Below, piece by piece: positions 53,028 to 64,000 of a DNA stretch of 64,000 nt. A model generated the notes under the pieces. That model made no database searches and was not told the origin of the DNA. It worked only from the letters and a program-made list of their open reading frames with translations. The first letter of the stretch is position 1. Every line of letters begins with the position of its first letter. The translations under genes were made by a program, and so were the position numbers. Source of the stretch: Pedinophyceae sp. YPF-701 (Eukaryota > Chlorophyta > Pedinophyceae); assembly GCA_916048055.1 (NCBI GenBank), contig CAJZHL010000010.1, positions 124,001 through 188,000 on the forward strand, read 5' to 3'.

Positions 53028-54710
53028 ATGGCCACGGCCACCCGGCAGCAGACGCAGTGGCAGTCGAGTTTCCTCGACTGGCAGGGCGGCGCCGACATCT
53101 CGACTACCGGCGCCCTCCGCATGAACGGCCGGGCCGACGTGCTGTCCATCCCGGGCAAGGACGACGCCCACTGGCTCGACCTCGAGGTCGTCGCCGACAC
53201 CATGAACAAGCTGACTCAGGCCGAGCGTCAGACCGTCACCGTCGACGACATGCGCGCGCTGCGCGACCTCCTGCGCAGCAAGGACAACCTGCGCCCGCTG
53301 TCGCGCGCGCGCAACCAGGACGAGGGCCTCACGGAGCGCGTCACGGCCGCGATCGTCAACGGCAACGTCGCGTCGGACGGCGACCGCACCCTGCGTGGCC
53401 ACAAGCTGACTAAGGTCAAGCACCAGGTCGAGTTCGTCGTCAAGCACAAGAACGAGATCCCGCAGCCGATCCTCAAGGGGCTCGCGGACAAGCTCGCGGC
53501 GCTGCGCGACGGCGAGGCGGGCGGCAGGAGCGTGATGGACCGCCGGCGCCTCGGAGGGGCGCACCTCCCGCGGACGACGGGCGGCACGGAGGCCGCCGCG
53601 GGCCCGCTGAAGCAGGACGGCACGCCGGACATGCGCTACAAGGCCAACAGGGAGGCCGCGGCGAAGGAGGCCGCGGGGAGCAGCACGGCGCCCAACACCC
53701 CCCTCAAGAAGGACGGCACGCCCGACATGCGGTACAAGGCCAACAGGGAGGCGGCGGCGCGGGAGGCGTCCTCGGGGACGTCGACGCCGGTCAACACGCC
53801 GCTGAAGAAGGACGGCACGCCCGACATGCGCTACAAGGCCAACAGGGAGGCGCGCAACGCGGCGGCGTCCTCGCCGACGGCGTCGTTCCAGACGGCGTCC
53901 AGCACGGGCCCGCTCAAGAAGGACGGCACGCCCGACATGCGGTACAAGGCCAACAGGGCTGAGGACGGCGCGGGGACCTCCTCCCCGGCCGCCTCCTCGG
54001 CCTCCTTCTACACCGCAACCAGCACGGGCCCGCGGAAGAAGGACGGCACGCCGGACATGCGCTACAGGGCCAACAGGGCCGCGTCCGGCGCCGGCGCGGC
54101 GACGTCCTCGCCCGCTGCGTCGTTCCAGACGGCGTCGAGCGCGGGCCCGCTCAAGGAGGACGGCACGCCGGACATGCGGTACAAGGCCAACAAGGCCATG
54201 TACGGCGCCGCGACCAGCGACACCGCGTCGTCGGCGGGGCCGTCGCAGTTCTCGTTCCCGGTCGAGCAGCAGCGCGACTACGCGACGCCGCAGCTCCGCC
54301 GGCCCACGCGCGTCGTGTCCTCGTCCGCTGCGAGCAGCAGCGCGGGTGCGGCGCTGCGAGCCGCTGCGCCGCGGGCGGCCCCGGCGCGGGCGTCGTCGGC
54401 CTCGCTCAACGTGTCGGGTCCGCTGAAGAGGGACGGGACCCCGGACATGCGGTACAGCGTCAACAGGACCACGTACGCGCCGGCGGCGCCGTCGCACACG
54501 TACACGTCGGCGGCGTACGCGCCCGGGCCGCTCAAGTCCGACGGGACGCCGGACATGCGCTACAGCGCCAACCGGACCGCGTACGCGACCCCGACGTCCT
54601 CGTACACGTCGGCGTCGTACGCGCCGGGCCCGCTGAAGATGGACGGCACCCCCGACATGCGCTTCAGCGCCAACCGGGCGGCGTTCGGGGGCTCGCGCGG
54701 GCGCAGGTGA
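53028..54710 (+). CDS. Protein with nine DGTPDMRY repeats, unknown function
   Basis: A single-exon gene of 560 residues with ATG in excellent context (caccATGG). The first 185 residues are mostly helical and charged, with no family I can name. From about residue 190, nine copies of a 17-residue motif (GPLKKDGTPDMRYKANR) are spaced by 15-60 residues of Ala/Ser/Thr-rich linker. Only the DGTPDMR core is invariant; position 4 varies (Q, K, E, R, S, M) and the last three copies change YKAN to YSVN, YSAN and FSAN. Such motifs suggest a multivalent linear binding module. I have the impression that similar repeats occur in scattered algal and large-virus proteins, but this is memory and unverified. 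There are no signal peptide or membrane segments. Confidence 0.78.
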   Translation: MATATRQQTQWQSSFLDWQGGADISTTGALRMNGRADVLSIPGKDDAHWLDLEVVADTMNKLTQAERQTVTVDDMRALRDLLRSKDNLRPLSRARNQDEGLTERVTAAIVNGNVASDGDRTLRGHKLTKVKHQVEFVVKHKNEIPQPILKGLADKLAALRDGEAGGRSVMDRRRLGGAHLPRTTGGTEAAAGPLKQDGTPDMRYKANREAAAKEAAGSSTAPNTPLKKDGTPDMRYKANREAAAREASSGTSTPVNTPLKKDGTPDMRYKANREARNAAASSPTASFQTASSTGPLKKDGTPDMRYKANRAEDGAGTSSPAASSASFYTATSTGPRKKDGTPDMRYRANRAASGAGAATSSPAASFQTASSAGPLKEDGTPDMRYKANKAMYGAATSDTASSAGPSQFSFPVEQQRDYATPQLRRPTRVVSSSAASSSAGAALRAAAPRAAPARASSASLNVSGPLKRDGTPDMRYSVNRTTYAPAAPSHTYTSAAYAPGPLKSDGTPDMRYSANRTAYATPTSSYTSASYAPGPLKMDGTPDMRFSANRAAFGGSRGRR

Positions 54711-55167: not shown

Positions 55168-58100
55168 TCACGCCACCACCACCACCTCGCCGCCCGCCAC
55201 CCGCGCCGAGACACCCCCCCCTTGCAACTCTCCCAGCCCCAGCCTCGCCACAGCCTCCGCCGGCAGCGCCGGCAGCTCGCCCTCGGGCGTCAAGGCGTAG
55301 TTCGCCCGCGCCCAGGCCTGCAGCATCTCCGCGGCCTGCGCCTTCGCGACCCCGAGGCAGCTCCCGTGCAGCCGCGCAAAATGCTTCATGATAGCGAAGT
55401 ACGCATTTGTCTTTCTTTGAAAGTCGACGCCGGGCAGCGCGCAGGTGACCTTCGCGTCCGATCCGCACTCGACCGAGGCCGCCGCGTCCACGACGCCGAA
55501 TCGTCCCAGCCTCCTCAGCACGCGCTCCCGTTCGCCGGGCGTGACGATCACGACGCCGCAGCTGCACCCCCCCGCCGACCGCGGCACCGCCCGCGCCATC
55601 CGCTGCTCGTACAGCGCACTCCCTGTACGGCCGACCTGCACCACCAGCGTGACGTCCCTGCACGTCACTCCCGGCAGCTGAGAGTCCCCCACCAGCAACA
55701 CCCCCCTGTCGGCGTCATCGAACGCCCGCGCCGCCGCCTCCCGCTCGCCCTCGCCGATCCCGTCCGCGTGCGCCTCGAGCACGCGGATCCCCACCGCGCA
55801 GCACAGCTCGCCGAGGAAGCCCAGGTACTCGTCGCCGAACGCGCTGCACACCAGCACCTTGTGTCGCGGCTGCTGCGCCGCCGTGGCGACGTACGCCATC
55901 ACCGTGTGCGTCTGCCGCTCCAGCGGCACGTCGACGAGCGCGCCGGGCGCGAGGTCCTGGACGCCGACCTGCGCCTTCGCAGGCGGCCCGGCCGGCGCCG
56001 CAGCGCCGTCGAGTGGCGGCGGGGGGGGGTATTCCTGCTGGTCTTGGAACACGGCGTGGTTCTCCGGCACGTACTTGTACGGCGCCGTACGGCGCTTGAA
56101 CGGCGCCAGGCTCTCGCGCAGCCGGCCGCGCGTGAGGGGCCCGTCAACAAAACACCCCTGCTCGGACATGTGCGTGAGGAACCCCGACCACACCGCGCTC
56201 TTCGACAGCGCCGTCGGGTTCCCGATCACCACCAGGCCGTACCGCGCGCGCGTGAGCGCCACATTGAGCCTTCTCGGGTCCTTCACGAACCCGATCGTGT
56301 TCCCTCCGCGTTGCGCATTCGACCGCACGCACGACAGGATGATGTAGTCCTTCTCGCGCCCCTGGAACGCGTCCACCGACGCTACCTCTATCAACGCCGC
56401 GCGGACACCCCCCGGCCGCGCGAGGACCATCTCGATGTGCGTCCGCTGCCCCGCGTACGGCGTGATCACGCCGATCTCCTCCGGCTGCACCCCGCTGTCC
56501 AGCAGCTGCATCACGGCCTCCTCCACGACCTTCGCCTCGTGTCGGTTGACGTACGACGTGCCCGCGCCGGCCATCTCCTCGAAGCCCGCGCACGCCACGA
56601 ACATCATCGGCAGCCGCGGCCCGGGCCACGGAAACGCCACCGCCCGCCGCGTGCGCTCCTCCTCGGTCACGCCGTTGCGCAGACAGCCCTCGTAGAACGC
56701 CTCGCTCGACCACTGCGCCAGCGCCGGGTGCATGCGGTACTGCACCGCGAGGAGGTGCGGCCGCATGCCCATAAACAGCAGCCGCTCGAACAGGCTCACG
56801 TTCAGCCCCGCGCGCGCCGCGGCCTGACTCAGGCACACGGGGCCGAGCTGGCAGTGGTCGCCGACGAGCACGAGCTGGCGCGCGCCCTTGACGATCGGCA
56901 GGAGGCACTCGGGCTCCGTGGCCTGCGTGGCCTCGTCGACGATGACGCGCCGGAAACAGATCTGGTCGAGGCGGGCGTCGCCCGCGCCCGCGCACGTGCA
57001 GCACACCACCTGCGCGTCCGCGAGGACCTCCTTGTGCGCCTCGCGCTCGCTCTTGCGCAGCTTCTGCTCCTGCTTCTTCGACAGCGCGTGCCCGCCGTCC
57101 CGCAGCTCGCGCAGCGTGCGCGCGCGCTCCGCGGCGACCGAGGCGCTCTGTGCCGCGACCACGTGCGTCATCAGGTGCCGCGTCCTGGGGGAGTTTTCCT
57201 CCAGGACCGACTCGCGGGACCGCGCGCACATCCGCGACACGCGCACGCCCGTCCGGCTGATGCGCTCCGCCAGGTGGTCCACCGCGACGTTGCTCGGCGC
57301 TGTCACCAGCAGCTTGCCGTCGTCGAGCTGGCACAGCTGGTACACGAGCGTCGCGGACGTGACGGTCTTGCCCGTGCCGGGCGGCCCCTGGATGAGCGCG
57401 AGCGGCGCGGTGACGATGGCGCGGAGCGCGTCCTGCTGCGGGCCGTTGAGCGGCGGCAGGCCCGGCGCGGCGATCGCGGCCGGAAGCGGCGCTGGGAGCG
57501 CAAGATCGGACACGTCGTTTCGAAGCAGCTTGTCTTGTAGCACCGTCGAAATGCACTGTTTGTCGCGGACGAACTGCGCGAGCGCCTTTTCCATCCGCCG
57601 GTACGTCGCGTCGATCCACGTCGGCTGCGCGCTGTACCCTTGCGTCGTCCCCGGCGGAGACCCCCCCTGTTGCGTGATGCGGAGCTTGACGTGGCCGAGG
57701 CGGTCGACGCTCACGATTGAGCCCGTCGCCGTCCAGCCCGGCACCGCCGCGTGGGTGAGCGTGAGCTGGTCGGCGACGTGGAGCTTCGTGCTGCTATCGT
57801 CGGGCGGGAGGACGAAGGTTGCAATGCCGCGGCCGTTCGTCTGCGCCCACGTGACGGTGAGGTTGCACACGCGCTTGGCCTTGGTCTGCTGGTGTGCCGC
57901 GCGGCAGTCCAGCTCCAAGAGACGCCTCCAGGAGGTCTCGTAGCTCGTGGCGTCGGCGTACCGCAGCGGGACCTGGAGAAGGGGGTGTTTGGGAGGGGGG
58001 GGGTGTGGGTGTTGTGGGTGGTCGAGGATTCAAGACCCCCGCCGCACACCACCACCACAAGACCGACAAAGCGACTTGTAAGATCCACGTGATAAAAGCA

Positions 58101-58870
58101 ACAACAGCAAGGAGTGTGTGGGCATGGAACAGACAAACAACGGCGGCGGACGCGCGCACCGGCTCCAGCGTCGCGGCAGGCGCGCACTCCTCCTCCGCCT
58201 TCGGCAGGTCCTCCACGCGCGCGTTCGGGTCCACCTTCCACGCCGCCTCCAGCGCCCGCATCTGCCCGTGCGTCAACCTACGCGCGCCCATCACCTGCTC
58301 GTGCGACGGCCGCGCAACGAGCGCCCGCGCGAACTGCCGCTCCACGACCGCCGGCTCCCAGCTCCCGGGGTCCGCGCGCACGCCCGGCGGCAGGCCCACG
58401 CCCTCCACGAGATCCTGTGCTCGTGCGTGAACCACGGACCGCGCAACCACGATGGGCCGTGTTGTACGCCGGTCGAGCACGAAGCCGAGGTTGAACGCGT
58501 TGCGCGCGCCCGTGACGCAGCACTCGAGGACGCTGTCGCCCAGGGGCGAGGAGCGGTGCAGCCGGACGTCCTTGTGCTGCCCGCGGAGCATGTGGTGGAC
58601 GATGCAGGCGTGCCCGGTGCCGACGCGGCCGTTGCAGAACCATTTCTGCGTCGCGACGCACTGCACGAGGCAGCGCGGGTCGCCGATGCCGCAGTACGCG
58701 CACTCAACGGGCGCCTTGGGGGGGTGTGAGGGGCCTGGGGGGGGTGTTGTTGGGGGGGTGTTGTCCCGTCGTGTTGCGGAGGTGGAGCTGGCGACGCGGA
58801 GGGGGATCCGGCGGCTCGTGACTTCGTCGTCGTCCACGTCCATGTCCTCGTCGACGCTGAGGTGACGCAT
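55168..58870 (-). CDS. UPF1: UPF1 RNA helicase with added DEAD-box-like C-terminal module
   Basis: Two exons (58870-58142 or 58139, then 57972-55168) encode about 1177 residues. UPF1 is the ATP-dependent helicase of nonsense-mediated decay. The Cys/His-rich domain starts at Cys57 (CAYCG, then KWFCNGR, GTGHACIVHH, SVLECC). The stalk and 1B domain follow (VPLRYADATSYET). The SF1 core has GPPGTGKT, VDEATQATEPE, GDHCQLGPV, QYRMHP, DAFQGREKDYI and RLNVALTRA, all intact. After a Pro-rich linker comes a module of about 260 residues not normal for UPF1: KVLVCSAF, AHADGIGEGERE, LVVQVG and a tail ending PALPAEAVARLGL. This resembles RecA2 plus C-terminal tail of Mss116-type DEAD-box helicases, with motifs V and VI eroded. 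The third zinc site of the CH domain also looks degenerate. Confidence 0.9.
57973..58141 (-). other. UPF1 intron
   Basis: Donor GTTGTT or GTTTGT near 58141-58138, acceptor ctccag ending at 57973. It holds an AT-richer stretch in its 5' half and a long C-run before the acceptor. Both donor choices keep the frame and differ by one Val. Confidence 0.7.
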
Positions 58871-59944: not shown

Positions 59945-62900
59945 TCACACAGCGGCCACCGTCCCGCTCCCCACCACCCGCGGCGCGACACCCAACCCAT
60001 GCACTCCCGCGAGGCCCCACTTTGCCACTTTGGCTGCTGGCAGTGCCGGCGGATGGCCCTCTGACGTCAGCGCGTGGTTCGCCGTCGCCCAGCCCCGCAG
60101 TACCTCTGCGACCTGCGCCTTGTCGAGCCCGACGCTCTCCCGCGGCAGCAGCAAGAGTCCCATCAGTGCAAAGTACGCCTTTTTCTTTCTCTCCAGGTCG
60201 ACCCCACGCAGCGCCTCGTCGATCTCCGCGTCCAGCTCGGGCGTTGGCTCGCAAACGCGATGCCGGCCATGCTCGTCCGATCCGTCAAAGATGTCAAACG
60301 TCTCCAGTCTCTTCAGCACATCTGGCTTTTCGCCGGGCGTCACGATGACAATACTTTGGCAGTCCTCCGCGCTCGACAGCGGTTCCGCCAGTCGCTGCTG
60401 GTACTTGGTCTCCTTCACGCGGCCGATCTGCAGCACCAAGTCGACGTCCTTGCACGTCAGCGCCGGCACCGGACCGGCGTTCCCAAGCAGCACGCCGCTC
60501 TCAGCCTCGTTGAACGCCTCAACAGCCGCCTGCTGCTCATCCGTGCCCATCCCATCCGTGTGCGCCTCTAGCACAGGGATCCCCAGCCTCCGGCACAGCT
60601 CGCCCAAGAATCCCAGGTGCGCATCGGTGAAATACGTAAACACCAGCACCTTGCGCCGCTGACTCACCGCCTCCTTCAGGTATGCCACCACCGCGTGCGT
60701 CTGGCGCTCCAGCGGCACGGCAACCAGCGTCCCGCGCGCGGGCTCCCTGACAGGAGCATATTCTGGTAGCAAGCTGTCCTCTGGCTTCAGCGCCTGGTTC
60801 GCCACTGCCCATCTCTGTGTCATCACCAGGACCTGCTTCTTGTCGAGCCCGACGCTCTCCCGTGGCAGCTGCAAGAGTCCCATCAGTGCAAAGTACGCCT
60901 TTTTCTTTCTCTCCAAGTCGACCCCGCGCAGCGCCTCGTCGATCTCCGCGTCCAGCTCGGGCGTTGGCTCCAAAGCGCCAGCAAGCGTGTCCGATCCGTC
61001 CACGACGCCCGACGTCTTCAGCCTGTTCAGCATGTCTGGCTTTTCACCAGGCGTGACGATCACGACACTGCTGCTGCTGCTGGACTCTCCCGTCGACAGC
61101 GGTTTCGCCGCCGCCAGCCGCTGCTGGTACACCTTGGTTATGACGCGGCCGATCTGCAGCACCAAGTCGACGTCCTTGCACGTCAGTGCCGGCACCCGAC
61201 TGCCGGTGTTTCCAAGCAGCAGCACGCCGCTCTCGGCCTCGTCGAACGCCCTTGCAGCCGCCTGCCGCTCCCCCATGTCCATCCCATCCGAGTGCGCCTC
61301 GAGCACAGGGATGCCTAGCGCCCGGCACAGCTCGCCCAAGAATCCCAGGTGTCTGTCGCTGAAGGCCGTGAACACCAAAACCCTGCGCCGCTGATCCACC
61401 GCCTCCTTCAGGTACGCCACCACCGCGTGCGTCTGCCGCTCCAGCGGCACGGCAACGAGCGACCCGGGCGCGACACCCGTCCCCTCCAGCCCCACCCCCT
61501 CCAGCCCCCACTTCGCCACCGAGGCCGCTGGCACTGCCGGCGGATGGCCCTCTGACGTCAGCGCGTGGTTCGCCACCGCCCATCCGCGGATCATCTGCAC
61601 CACCTGCGCCTTGTCGAGCCCGACGCACTCCCGTGGCAGCGGCCCTATGATATTCATTAGCGCGAAGTATGCCTTTGTTTTTCTCTGCAAGTCGACCCCG
61701 CGCAGCGCCTCGTCGATCTCCGCGCTCAGTGTGGGCGTCGGCCTGAAAGCGCTAGCGAGCGAGTCCGACCCGTCAACGACGCCCACATCCCCCAGTCTCT
61801 TCAGCATGTCTGGCTTCTCACCAGGTGTGACGATCACGACAGCGCAGCCGGGCTCGCCCGCCGACCGCGGTTTGGCCGCCCCCAGCCGCTGCTGGTACAC
61901 CCTGGCCGTCACGCGGCCGATCTGCAGCACCACGTTGACGTCCTTGCACTTCACTGGCATCTGACCATCACCGGTGTTCCCAAGCAGCAGCACGCCGCTC
62001 TTGGTATTATTGAACGCCCTTGCAGCTGCCTGCCGCTCCTCCGCGTCCATCCCATCCGTGTGCGCCTCAAGCACAGGGATCACGAGCGCCCGGCACAGCT
62101 TGCCCAAGAAACCCAGGTGCACATCGCTGAACGCGGTGAACACCAGCACCTTGCGCCGCTGACTCACCGCCTCCTTCAGGTACGCCACCACCGCGTGCGT
62201 CTGGCGCTCCAGCGGCACGGCAACCAGCGACCCGGGCGCGAGGTCCTTGACGTCGTGAACTTGCACCGGATCCTGCCTTGAAACAGGCATTGCAACAACC
62301 TTCTGTTTCTTCTTCTGTTGAGTTGCTTGTTTGGTGGGCTGTGCCGTTTGAGGTGCCTGCGCACCCACGGCCTTGCGCGGCGGCGGCGGCGGCGGCGGGT
62401 GGGAAGCACTCGTTTTCAGTTGCTCCCGGAACACGGTGTGGTTCTCCGGAACATATTGATACGGGGTCGTCCGGCGGGTGAACGGCATCAGGCTCTCGCG
62501 CAGCCGGCCGCGCGAGAGCGGCCCGTCGACGAGGCAGCCCTGCTCGGACATGTGCGTCAGGAACCCCGACCACACCGCGCTCTTCGACAGCGACGTCGGG
62601 TTCCCGATCACCACCAGGCCGTACCGCGCGCGCGTGAGCGCCACGTTGAGCCGCCGCGGCTCGTTCACGAACCCGATGGCCTTGCTCTTCCGCTCGTTCG
62701 ACCGCACGCACGACAGGATGATGTAGTCCTTCTCGCGCCCCTGGAACGCGTCCACCGACGCCACCTCCACGCGCGCGCACTGCGCCGCCCGCGCCGCGTT
62801 GCCCGGCCGCGCGAGCACCATCTCGATGTGCGTCCGCTGCCCCGCGTACGGCGTGATCACGCCGATCTCCTCCGCCTGCACCCCGTTGTCCAGCAGCTGC

Positions 62901-64000
62901 ATCACGGCCTCCTCCACGACCTTCGCCTCGTGTCGGTTGACGTACGACGTGCCCGCGCCCGCCATCTCCTCGAAGCCCGTGCACGCCACGAACATCATCG
63001 GCAGCCGCGGCCCGGGCCACGGAAACGCCACCGCCCGCCGCGTGCGCTCCTCCTCGGTCACGCCGTTGCGCAGACACCCCTCGTAGAACGCCTCGCTCGA
63101 CCACTGCGCCAGCGCCGGGTGCATGCGGTACTGCACCGCGAGGAGGTGCGGCCGCATGCCCATAAACAGCAGCCGCTCGAACAGGCTCACGTTCAGCCCC
63201 GCGCGCGCCGCCGCCTGACTCAGGCACACCGGCCCGAGCTGGCAGTGGTCGCCGACGAGCACGAGCTGCCGCGCGCCCTTGACGATCGGCAGGAGGCACT
63301 CGGGCTCCGTGGCCTGCGTGGCCTCGTCGACGATGACGCGGTGGAAGCCCATCTCGTCCAGGCGGGCGTCGCCCGCCGCTGCGCACGTGCAGCACACCAC
63401 CTGCACCTGCGACAGCACCTCCTTGTGCGCCTTGCGCTCGATCTTGCGCAGGTTCCGCTCCTGGTTCTTCGACAGCTCATGGCCGCTGTCCCGCAGCTCG
63501 CGCAGCTTGCGCGCGCGCTCCGCGGCGACCGAGGTGCCCTGCGCCGCAACCACGTGCGTCATCAGGTGCCGCGTCCTGGGGGAGTTTTCCTCCAGGACCG
63601 ACTCGCGGGACCGCGCGCACATCCGCGACACGCGCACGCCCGTCCGGCTGATGCGCTCCGCCAGGTGGTCCACCGCGACGTTGCTCGGCGCCGTCACCAG
63701 CAGCTTGCCGTCGTCGAGCTGGCACAGCTGGTACACCAGCGTCGCGGACGTGACGGTCTTGCCCGTGCCGGGCGGCCCCTGGATGAGCGCGAGCGGCGCG
63801 GTGACGATGGCGCGGAGCGCGTCCTGCTGCGGGCCGTTGAGCGGCGGCAGGCCCGGCGCCGAAATGTCGGCCGGCAGCGGCGCTGGGAGCACGAGGTCCG
63901 ACACGTCGTTGCGCAGGAGCTTCTTCTGGAGCACCGTCGACATGCACTTCTTGTCGTGCGCCAGCTGCCCGAGCGCCTTCTCCATCCGCCGGTACGTCGC
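59945..64000 (-). CDS. UPF1-like helicase with three tandem DEAD-box-like modules (5' partial)
   Basis: The gene enters from beyond the right edge; 1346 residues are visible from a Met at 63985, plus five further codons. The SF1 core is nearly identical to copy 1, with GPPGTGKT, VDEATQATEPE, QYRMHP, DAFQGREKDYI and RLNVALTRA intact, so it should be an active helicase. After a Pro-rich and Lys-rich linker, three modules of about 240-265 residues follow at visible residues 578, 837 and 1080 (near 62250, 61475 and 60745). Each starts LVAVPLERQTHAVVAYLKEAV. The first two keep KVLVFTAF or RVLVFTAF and the third KVLVFTYF. All three have an EAHTDGM or EAHSDGM box, a VLQIGRV strand and a conserved tail with SEGHPPA-type or related endings. 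Their helicase motifs V and VI are missing, so they are probably non-catalytic. Stop is TAG at the left end. Confidence 0.88.
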   Translation of the reverse strand, partial: ATYRRMEKALGQLAHDKKCMSTVLQKKLLRNDVSDLVLPAPLPADISAPGLPPLNGPQQDALRAIVTAPLALIQGPPGTGKTVTSATLVYQLCQLDDGKLLVTAPSNVAVDHLAERISRTGVRVSRMCARSRESVLEENSPRTRHLMTHVVAAQGTSVAAERARKLRELRDSGHELSKNQERNLRKIERKAHKEVLSQVQVVCCTCAAAGDARLDEMGFHRVIVDEATQATEPECLLPIVKGARQLVLVGDHCQLGPVCLSQAAARAGLNVSLFERLLFMGMRPHLLAVQYRMHPALAQWSSEAFYEGCLRNGVTEEERTRRAVAFPWPGPRLPMMFVACTGFEEMAGAGTSYVNRHEAKVVEEAVMQLLDNGVQAEEIGVITPYAGQRTHIEMVLARPGNAARAAQCARVEVASVDAFQGREKDYIILSCVRSNERKSKAIGFVNEPRRLNVALTRARYGLVVIGNPTSLSKSAVWSGFLTHMSEQGCLVDGPLSRGRLRESLMPFTRRTTPYQYVPENHTVFREQLKTSASHPPPPPPPRKAVGAQAPQTAQPTKQATQQKKKQKVVAMPVSRQDPVQVHDVKDLAPGSLVAVPLERQTHAVVAYLKEAVSQRRKVLVFTAFSDVHLGFLGKLCRALVIPVLEAHTDGMDAEERQAAARAFNNTKSGVLLLGNTGDGQMPVKCKDVNVVLQIGRVTARVYQQRLGAAKPRSAGEPGCAVVIVTPGEKPDMLKRLGDVGVVDGSDSLASAFRPTPTLSAEIDEALRGVDLQRKTKAYFALMNIIGPLPRECVGLDKAQVVQMIRGWAVANHALTSEGHPPAVPAASVAKWGLEGVGLEGTGVAPGSLVAVPLERQTHAVVAYLKEAVDQRRRVLVFTAFSDRHLGFLGELCRALGIPVLEAHSDGMDMGERQAAARAFDEAESGVLLLGNTGSRVPALTCKDVDLVLQIGRVITKVYQQRLAAAKPLSTGESSSSSSVVIVTPGEKPDMLNRLKTSGVVDGSDTLAGALEPTPELDAEIDEALRGVDLERKKKAYFALMGLLQLPRESVGLDKKQVLVMTQRWAVANQALKPEDSLLPEYAPVREPARGTLVAVPLERQTHAVVAYLKEAVSQRRKVLVFTYFTDAHLGFLGELCRRLGIPVLEAHTDGMGTDEQQAAVEAFNEAESGVLLGNAGPVPALTCKDVDLVLQIGRVKETKYQQRLAEPLSSAEDCQSIVIVTPGEKPDVLKRLETFDIFDGSDEHGRHRVCEPTPELDAEIDEALRGVDLERKKKAYFALMGLLLLPRESVGLDKAQVAEVLRGWATANHALTSEGHPPALPAAKVAKWGLAGVHGLGVAPRVVGSGTVAAV
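59948..62255 (-). repeat. Three in-frame module repeats of about 730-800 bases
   Basis: Direct repeats within the coding sequence of UPF1-like copy 2. Units run approximately 62255-61480, 61478-60750 and 60748-59948. Blocks such as gtctggcgctccagcggcac and tgcgcctcgagcacaggg recur in each. The third unit keeps the AKWGLAGVHGL end of the ancestral tail. Confidence 0.88.

What the first reader, a model, noticed from the sequence alone, without database searches (positions are those of the whole stretch)
59945..62255. UPF1-type helicase fused to three tandem degenerate DEAD-box RecA2 modules
Seen: after an intact UPF1 helicase core, the same open frame continues into three repeats of about 240-265 residues. 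Each has the order expected for the second RecA domain of an Mss116-like DEAD-box protein: VPLERQTHAVVAYL start, VLVF strand, EAHTDGM-type box with ERQAAARAF, VLQIGRV strand, YQQRL, VIVTPGEKPDML. A tail follows that resembles the PPALPKKxxxKMGLKG end of that family. Motif V (ARGLD) and the arginine-finger motif VI (HRxGRxGR) are not recognisable. Known: UPF1 is an SF1 helicase and normally ends in a disordered SQ-rich tail. Inference: the modules are non-catalytic RNA or protein binding units that extend or redirect decay activity. I know of no described UPF1 of this form.
Basis: partly seen in the sequence, partly recalled or inferred. Interest (0 to 1): 0.88.

Follow-up and report, generated by a model that had tools for sequence, protein, structure and literature searches.

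The report
UPF1 helicase with DEAD-box-derived tail
A green alga carries two extra copies of the mRNA-surveillance helicase UPF1 whose tails are built from one or three worn-down copies of the second half of a neighbouring RNA helicase, an unusual domain combination whose use to the cell is still unknown.

Summary
The frame ending at 59945 (-) codes a UPF1-type SF1 helicase core followed, without a break, by three ~250-residue modules (61451-62218, 60719-61450, 59948-60718). Pfam finds Helicase_C three times in the protein (E 9.4e-15, above cut-off), though each module alone falls just below it. Template-free models of two modules, of modest confidence, have Mss116 domain 2 (RecA2 plus C-terminal extension) as best solved match. 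The organism is almost certainly the pedinophyte alga YPF-701 (Akinorimonas japonica). A second UPF1 copy next door (55168-58870) has one module; a canonical UPF1 on another contig has none. Just upstream, outside the window, lies a DEAD-box gene of Mss116/Has1 type with all motifs, whose RecA2+extension aligns with nearly the whole of every module (29-34%), far better than the other DEAD-box loci tested: the likely donor. Motif V, most of motif VI and most RNA-contact positions are lost, so the modules cannot be half of a working DEAD-box ATPase; they show signs of weak purifying selection. Best reading: catalytically dead docking modules. Partner and expression unknown.

The parts
62480..64000 (-). 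UPF1 SF1 helicase core of copy 2 (part inside the window; exon 2 continues to contig position C10:188360 = window position 64360)
   Evidence: Pfam AAA_11/AAA_12, PDB UPF1 E 7e-159, six of six core motif patterns found
62219..62479 (-). end of the core and linker rich in P, Q and K between core and module 1
   Evidence: translation
61451..62218 (-). module 1: degenerate RecA2 plus C-terminal extension, 256 aa
   Evidence: Helicase_C 3e-4 alone; 33.6% to neighbour DEAD-box residues 507-749, E 1e-25
60719..61450 (-). module 2, 244 aa; its extreme C-terminal end has diverged
   Evidence: Helicase_C 0.0012 alone; 29.5% to neighbour, E 1e-19; model md58a8c868baa
59948..60718 (-). module 3, 257 aa, followed by the stop codon 59945-59947
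   Evidence: Helicase_C 2.3e-4 alone; 32.3% to neighbour, E 1e-26; model mc716716ab1e8
58160..58870 (-). copy 1, exon 1 open frame with the UPF1 CH (UPF2-binding zinc) domain; true start codon not settled
   Evidence: UPF1_Zn_bind 5.1e-41; splice donor
57973..58159 (-). copy 1 intron, 187 nt, GT..AG, at the same place as the 157-nt intron of copy 2 (predicted, no cDNA)
55930..57972 (-). copy 1, exon 2: UPF1 helicase core and linker
   Evidence: Pfam AAA_11/AAA_12; 58% to the canonical UPF1 of the same genome
55168..55929 (-). copy 1, its single module (253 aa) and stop codon
   Evidence: Helicase_C 2e-4 alone; 30.3% to neighbour, E 4e-22; 53% to module 2, 50% to module 3

Best explanation
A pair of tandem, lineage-specific UPF1 paralogues in a pedinophyte green alga acquired, as their tail, the second RecA domain plus C-terminal extension (D2) of a DEAD-box helicase of Mss116/Has1 type whose gene still lies immediately upstream on the same strand. 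One copy has one D2 module, the other three. The UPF1 motor and CH domain look intact at the sequence level, so the protein most likely still translocates on RNA and can meet UPF2. The modules have lost motif V, the motif VI histidine and last arginine and most RNA-contact positions, and have no RecA1 partner, so they cannot hydrolyse ATP; the most likely role (inference) is as tandem docking surfaces that tie this UPF1 to a partner protein or particle, in the way that the RecA2 domain of DDX6 and the dead second cassette of Brr2 act. Shown by computation: architecture, homology to D2, presence of the candidate donor, loss of catalytic motifs, signs of purifying selection. Inferred: splicing, the direction of the transfer, expression, and the docking role.
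For: Architecture. Fold: Foldseek best hit for both models is 4db2, Mss116 domain 2 bound to RNA duplex (E 1.4e-6 and 8.7e-7, probability 1.00), from alignments that hold only the four modules; a profile of the four modules against PDB sequences also gives MSS116 first (E 4.9e-4). Donor: a three-module query finds, besides the UPF1 copies, one place in the genome, C10:190653-191435, E 2e-24; the module profile scores 108.6 bits on that gene across profile positions 1-249 and at most 18.0 bits on the other loci (loci of 30 of the 96 Helicase_C matches were tested, the neighbour among them); each of the four modules aligns with neighbour residues from 507 on at 29-34%, E 1e-19 to 1e-26; the neighbour has GTGKT, PTREL, TPGR, DEAD, SAT, ARGVD and HRLGRTAR in one frame and its own RecA2 part matches MSS116 D2 best (E 6e-17). 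Function kept: two copies with the same design; observed pN/pS 0.63-0.85 lies below the means of neutral simulations (1.05-1.25), with 0-1 of 120 simulations as low in 11 of 12 comparisons and 7 of 120 in the other. Charge: neighbour D2 pI 9.6; modules 8.9, 5.8, 5.5 and, in copy 1, 6.6. Analogues: DDX6 RecA2 hub (PMC11239181, abstract and passages), Brr2 dead cassette (PMC11498004, passages).
Against: No transcript or protein evidence. Models have mean pLDDT 60 and 58 and the extension is below 50 in large part; lower Foldseek ranks include SNF2, RapA and XPB domains, so the fold match by itself says SF2 RecA2-type rather than Mss116 in particular. A single module by phmmer reaches MSS116 only at E 0.11, and a single module is under Pfam's Helicase_C cut-off. 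In the reverse search with the neighbour's C-terminal half (which includes the end of RecA1) the modules rank 8th, 10th, 12th and 16th of 47, behind intact DEAD-box genes. ATPgrasp_N also just passes its cut-off at 1082-1142 of the whole protein (27.6 against 27 bits), though not in module 3 alone nor in the exon-2 piece scanned. No partner is identified. Constraint on modules (dN/dS 0.55-0.81) is weaker than on the core (0.37). Module 1 (pI 8.9) keeps basic character. Neither fused copy's own annotated protein was among the listed protein hits, so public gene models may differ.
Confidence: 0.6

Rival explanations
1. The modules still bind RNA, as isolated Mss116 D2 binds 12-bp duplexes without nucleotide, and serve as extra RNA grips that raise UPF1 affinity or steer it to structured RNA.
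For: Best fold match is the duplex-bound D2; isolated Mss116 D2 is a duplex-binding domain (PMC4383044, sections 4, 8 and 9 read); the QxxR arginine is kept in 3 of 4 modules; module 1 has pI 8.9.
Against: The glutamine of QxxR and the motif V threonine/serine position are changed in 4 of 4 modules, the motif IV lysine is arginine in 1 and lost in 3 (the assignment of the DDX3X duplex contacts K451, G473, R480, T498 of PMC6626043, passages, to these motifs is recalled). pI has fallen from 9.6 to 5.5-6.6 in 3 of 4.
Confidence: 0.2
2. The fusion is a by-product of tandem duplication: the tail is translated but has no function, drifting while gene conversion keeps the core intact.
For: dN/dS of modules is high (0.55-0.81); in the cores of the two copies 100-base blocks of 96-100% identity alternate with blocks of 73-94%, a sign of conversion that does not reach the modules (68-71%).
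Against: All four modules stay open, the tail is kept in both copies, pN/pS lies below neutral expectation, and blocks such as PLERQTH and VIVTPGE are invariant in 4 of 4.
Confidence: 0.2
3. The core and the modules belong to separate transcripts, and the open frame joins two genes only on paper.
For: No cDNA was available to test it.
Against: One frame without a stop in two copies, with a like junction (LAPG[SA]LV[AD]VPLERQ), and no DEAD-type RecA1 half in front of any module.
Confidence: 0.05

Closest known systems
UPF1 / NAM7 (SF1B, nonsense-mediated decay)
   Same: CH domain and helicase core with all six motif patterns looked for; 58% identity to the canonical UPF1 of the same genome
   Different: Tail made of one or three RecA2+extension modules; the 1B domain is not recognised by Pfam in either copy although it is in the canonical one
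Mss116 / Has1-type DEAD-box helicase, domain 2 with C-terminal extension
   Same: Fold and order of elements; co-linear homology over about 230-250 residues to a gene of this kind next door
   Different: No RecA1 domain; motif V, much of motif VI and most RNA contacts lost; repeated in tandem on a helicase of another superfamily
Brr2 C-terminal cassette (dead second helicase cassette)
   Same: A helicase-derived, non-hydrolysing unit on the same chain as an active helicase (PMC11498004, passages)
   Different: Brr2 has a whole, similar cassette; here only the RecA2 half, from another superfamily, up to three times
DDX6/Dhh1 RecA2 hub
   Same: A DEAD-box RecA2 acting in mRNA decay as a protein-binding surface (PMC11239181, abstract and passages)
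   Different: DDX6 RecA2 is part of a working helicase; the FDF-binding pocket was not tested in the modules

Membership tests
UPF1 | N-terminal CH (UPF2-binding) domain | tested here: met
   PF09416 in copy 2, E 8.5e-46, and copy 1, 5.1e-41; four matches at three loci in the genome
UPF1 | SF1 helicase core motifs | tested here: met
   six of six motif patterns found in copy 1, copy 2 and the canonical protein; best PDB relatives UPF1
UPF1 | 1B domain | tested here: inconclusive
   PF18141 in canonical 7e-13, in neither copy at E <= 0.5, though the stretch aligns with the canonical protein
UPF1 | disordered S/TQ-rich C-terminal tail | tested here: not met
   4 S/TQ in about 850 residues of the copy 2 tail, 1 in about 317 of copy 1; the canonical copy also has 0 in 70, and such sites are lost in other lineages (PMC5709506, passages), so this does not exclude membership
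DEAD-box helicase (modules) | RecA2 fold / Helicase_C | tested here: met
   three stretches, whole protein over cut-off, single modules just under; Foldseek on modest models
DEAD-box helicase (modules) | RecA1 domain with Walker A and DEAD | tested here: not met
   no DEAD-type RecA1 between core and modules or between modules; the only DEAD (PF00270) match lies in the SF1 core and is under its cut-off
DEAD-box helicase (modules) | motif V (ARGxD) and motif VI (HRxGRxxR) | tested here: not met
   4 of 4 modules lack ARGxD; H and last R of motif VI lost in 4 of 4, first R kept in 4 of 4, second R kept in the copy 1 module only
DEAD-box helicase (modules) | ATP hydrolysis, RNA binding or unwinding | not testable with these tools
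   needs purified protein

The most novel reading that the evidence does not exclude
In pedinophyte algae a duplicated UPF1 has been turned into a dedicated decay or remodelling factor whose targeting is done not by a phospho-tail but by an expandable array of dead DEAD-box D2 modules that mimic the neighbouring helicase's docking surface, so that UPF1 is sent to that helicase's partners or substrates.
Probability: 0.25. Interest if true: 0.8.

Novelty: new variant of a known kind. Interest (0 to 1): 0.6.

Why it matters
It is a clear case of a domain moving between two helicase superfamilies, with the probable donor gene still beside the product, a one-module and a three-module version side by side, and an unmodified UPF1 elsewhere as control. 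That makes it possible to test how a dead helicase half is reused and what a UPF1 tail does. Of the 1242 proteins found with the fused protein as query, the 120 listed show no Helicase_C among their precomputed domains.

Tried and rejected
Relatives of the modules outside this genome: two protein searches with module words (8000 candidates scored, none at E <= 0.001, but the region held low-complexity words that may have filled the list; module 1 only, 5516 candidates, none at E <= 0.01, and since not even ordinary DEAD-box proteins rang, the sensitivity for distant relatives was low); scans of viral contigs (20 pattern matches, none confirmed) and genome contigs (73, none confirmed), which hold viruses, bacteria and archaea, not algae. 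Absence elsewhere is therefore weakly supported.

A viral origin was considered; nothing seen supports it. NCBIfam names for modules (DpdE) score far below their cut-offs and were dropped. Pfam side hits on modules: Portal_Mu, AmiR_N and ALGX are under their cut-offs; ATPgrasp_N is just over its own (27.6 against 27 bits) but did not appear for module 3 alone and is far weaker than Helicase_C, so I set it aside. dN/dS of modules against the neighbour is saturated (0.89-1.08) and was not used. Rfam gave 0 matches in the window. Prasinoderma was my first guess at the organism and was given up when the canonical UPF1 matched a Pedinophyceae sp. YPF-701 protein on a contig of the same length, 873497.

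Full report
What is there. The finding lies at the right end of the window, on the minus strand. The window is C10:124001-188000 of a 27.9-Mb, 32-contig genome. The open frame that stops at 59945-59947 reads 1351 residues to the window's end and goes on to C10:188360, where a predicted 157-nt GT..AG intron separates it from an exon with the UPF1 CH domain (CH domain E 8.5e-46). Exon 2 alone codes 1471 residues. Its first part is a UPF1 helicase core (human UPF1 E 7e-159 in the PDB; six of six motif patterns). A P/Q/K-rich linker leads to three modules that begin at residues 595, 851 and 1095 of the in-window frame.

Organism. Among the 120 protein hits listed, the one of highest identity (64%) is from Pedinophyceae sp. 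YPF-701, on a contig of 873497 bases, which is the length of contig C13 of this genome; 78 of 90 sampled 30-mers of that protein are found verbatim in the C13 stretch, the rest presumably crossing introns. The strain was described as Akinorimonas japonica in 2025 (PMC12574857, passages). The identification is inferred, but strongly.

What the modules are. One module by phmmer reaches MSS116 in the PDB only at E 0.11; a profile of the four modules puts MSS116 first at E 4.9e-4. Two models were made, for modules 2 and 3, with only the four module sequences as alignment and no templates: mean pLDDT 59.8 and 58.0, for the most part best in the first 80 residues. For both the best Foldseek match is 4db2, Mss116 domain 2 on an RNA duplex, with TM-scores of 0.56 and 0.53 by module length; lower ranks include RecA2 halves of SNF2, RapA and XPB proteins. 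These are modest models, and the match should be read together with the sequence evidence.

Where they come from. Beyond the window, 1.5 kb upstream of the CH-domain match and on the same strand, is a DEAD-box gene with GTGKT, PTREL, TPGR, DEAD, SAT, ARGVD and HRLGRTAR in one frame (Pfam DEAD 8.6e-33, Helicase_C 7e-20; best PDB relatives Has1 for the whole, and MSS116 for the RecA2 part). Its residues 507 to 734-753, from about the RecA1-RecA2 linker into the extension, align with each of the four modules at 29-34% (E 1e-19 to 1e-26). Searched with the three modules, the genome returns only the two UPF1 copies and this gene. The module profile scores 108.6 bits on it and 18.0 bits on the next best; loci of the 30 strongest of 96 Helicase_C matches were tested. 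In the reverse search with the neighbour's last 395 residues, intact DEAD-box genes rank above the modules (8th, 10th, 12th and 16th of 47), but the matches reaching beyond residue 300, into the extension, are, besides the gene itself, the four module places and two others (C31:651272, C19:158973). The neighbour, or its immediate ancestor, is thus the likely donor; direction is inferred from the degenerate state of the modules.

The pair of copies. A second gene, window 55168-58870, has the same predicted intron place, CH domain, core and one module. Both copies are 58% identical to the canonical UPF1 of the genome over about 645 residues; that protein shows no Helicase_C at E <= 0.5. Modules 1-3 are 71-72% alike; the copy 1 module is 53% like module 2 and 50% like module 3, so the amplification followed, or was homogenised after, the gene duplication. 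The cores are a mosaic: 100-base blocks of 96-100% identity alternate with blocks of 73-94%, and synonymous divergence per 60 codons runs from 0.04 to 0.55, which points to gene conversion in the core that does not reach the modules (68-71% at DNA level).

State of the modules. In the alignment, ARGxD of motif V is absent in 4 of 4; in motif VI (HRxGRxxR) the histidine and the last arginine are lost in 4 of 4, the first arginine is kept in 4 of 4, the second in the copy 1 module only; the glutamine of QxxR is lost in 4 of 4 and its arginine kept in 3 of 4. (Motif names are recalled.) The pI falls from 9.6 in the neighbour to 8.9, 5.8, 5.5 and 6.6. Observed pN/pS of 0.63-0.85 is below that of neutral simulations (means 1.05-1.25): 0 or 1 of 120 simulations reach it in 11 of 12 comparisons, 7 of 120 in the other. 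dN/dS is 0.37 in the core and 0.55-0.81 in modules. So the tail appears constrained, though loosely.

How it may work. With no RecA1 partner and broken motifs V and VI the modules cannot form an ATPase. Isolated Mss116 D2 binds duplexes without nucleotide (PMC4383044, sections 4, 8 and 9), which would make an RNA grip attractive, but most contact positions and, in three of four, the basic charge are lost. RecA2 domains are also known as protein hubs in decay: DDX6 RecA2 binds EDC3, LSM14A, PATL1, 4E-T and NOT1 (PMC11239181, passages); a non-hydrolysing helicase cassette regulates Brr2 (PMC11498004, passages). I therefore put docking to protein first (about 0.55 for the role itself), RNA grip about 0.2, no function about 0.2. 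UPF2 has one place over the cut-off and EST1 (the SMG5-7 family, recalled) one; UPF3 and SMG1 gave no match, which does not show absence, as nothing rang in the controls either. UPF1 terminal S/TQ sites are preferentially lost in species without SMG1 (PMC5709506, passages); the canonical copy here has none in its 70-residue tail, so there is no sign that the modules replaced a phospho-tail in the immediate ancestor.

Novelty. With the fused protein as query 1242 proteins were found; the 120 listed cover 32-42% of the query, about the length of the core, and none lists Helicase_C among its domains; the other 1122 were not shown. Literature searches (20 of 120 papers listed; 12 of 47; 10 of 1265; 4 of 4) showed no title or abstract start on a UPF1 of this form; the library lacks most subscription journals, and the paper describing the nuclear genome was not found there or read. 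I call it a new variant of a known kind: known domains, new combination.

Noticed in passing
55168-58870 against 59945-64000 and beyond: The two UPF1 cores are a mosaic of near-identical and diverged tracts, suggesting gene conversion that stops before the modules.
   Followed up: partly
53028-54710 (+): 560-aa open frame with nine GTPDMR[FY] repeats; Pfam gives only a sub-threshold PP1_bind match. Its 3' end faces the end of UPF1 copy 1.
   Followed up: partly
exon 2 N-terminal part of both copies (57400-57972; 63800 to beyond the window): The UPF1 1B domain is not recognised by Pfam in either fused copy, but is in the canonical UPF1 of the genome.
   Followed up: partly
L005:5563-7917 (-), C10:190563-192917: DEAD-box gene of Mss116/Has1 type directly upstream of UPF1 copy 2; an arginine-rich N-terminal stretch in a neighbouring frame could be an organelle-targeting signal, judged by eye only.
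   Followed up: partly
L042 (C13), canonical UPF1: The canonical UPF1 ends about 70 residues after the core without any S/TQ, unlike many plant and animal UPF1 (recalled). Its frames suggest an intron near the one shared by the two fused copies (not checked base by base).
   Followed up: no
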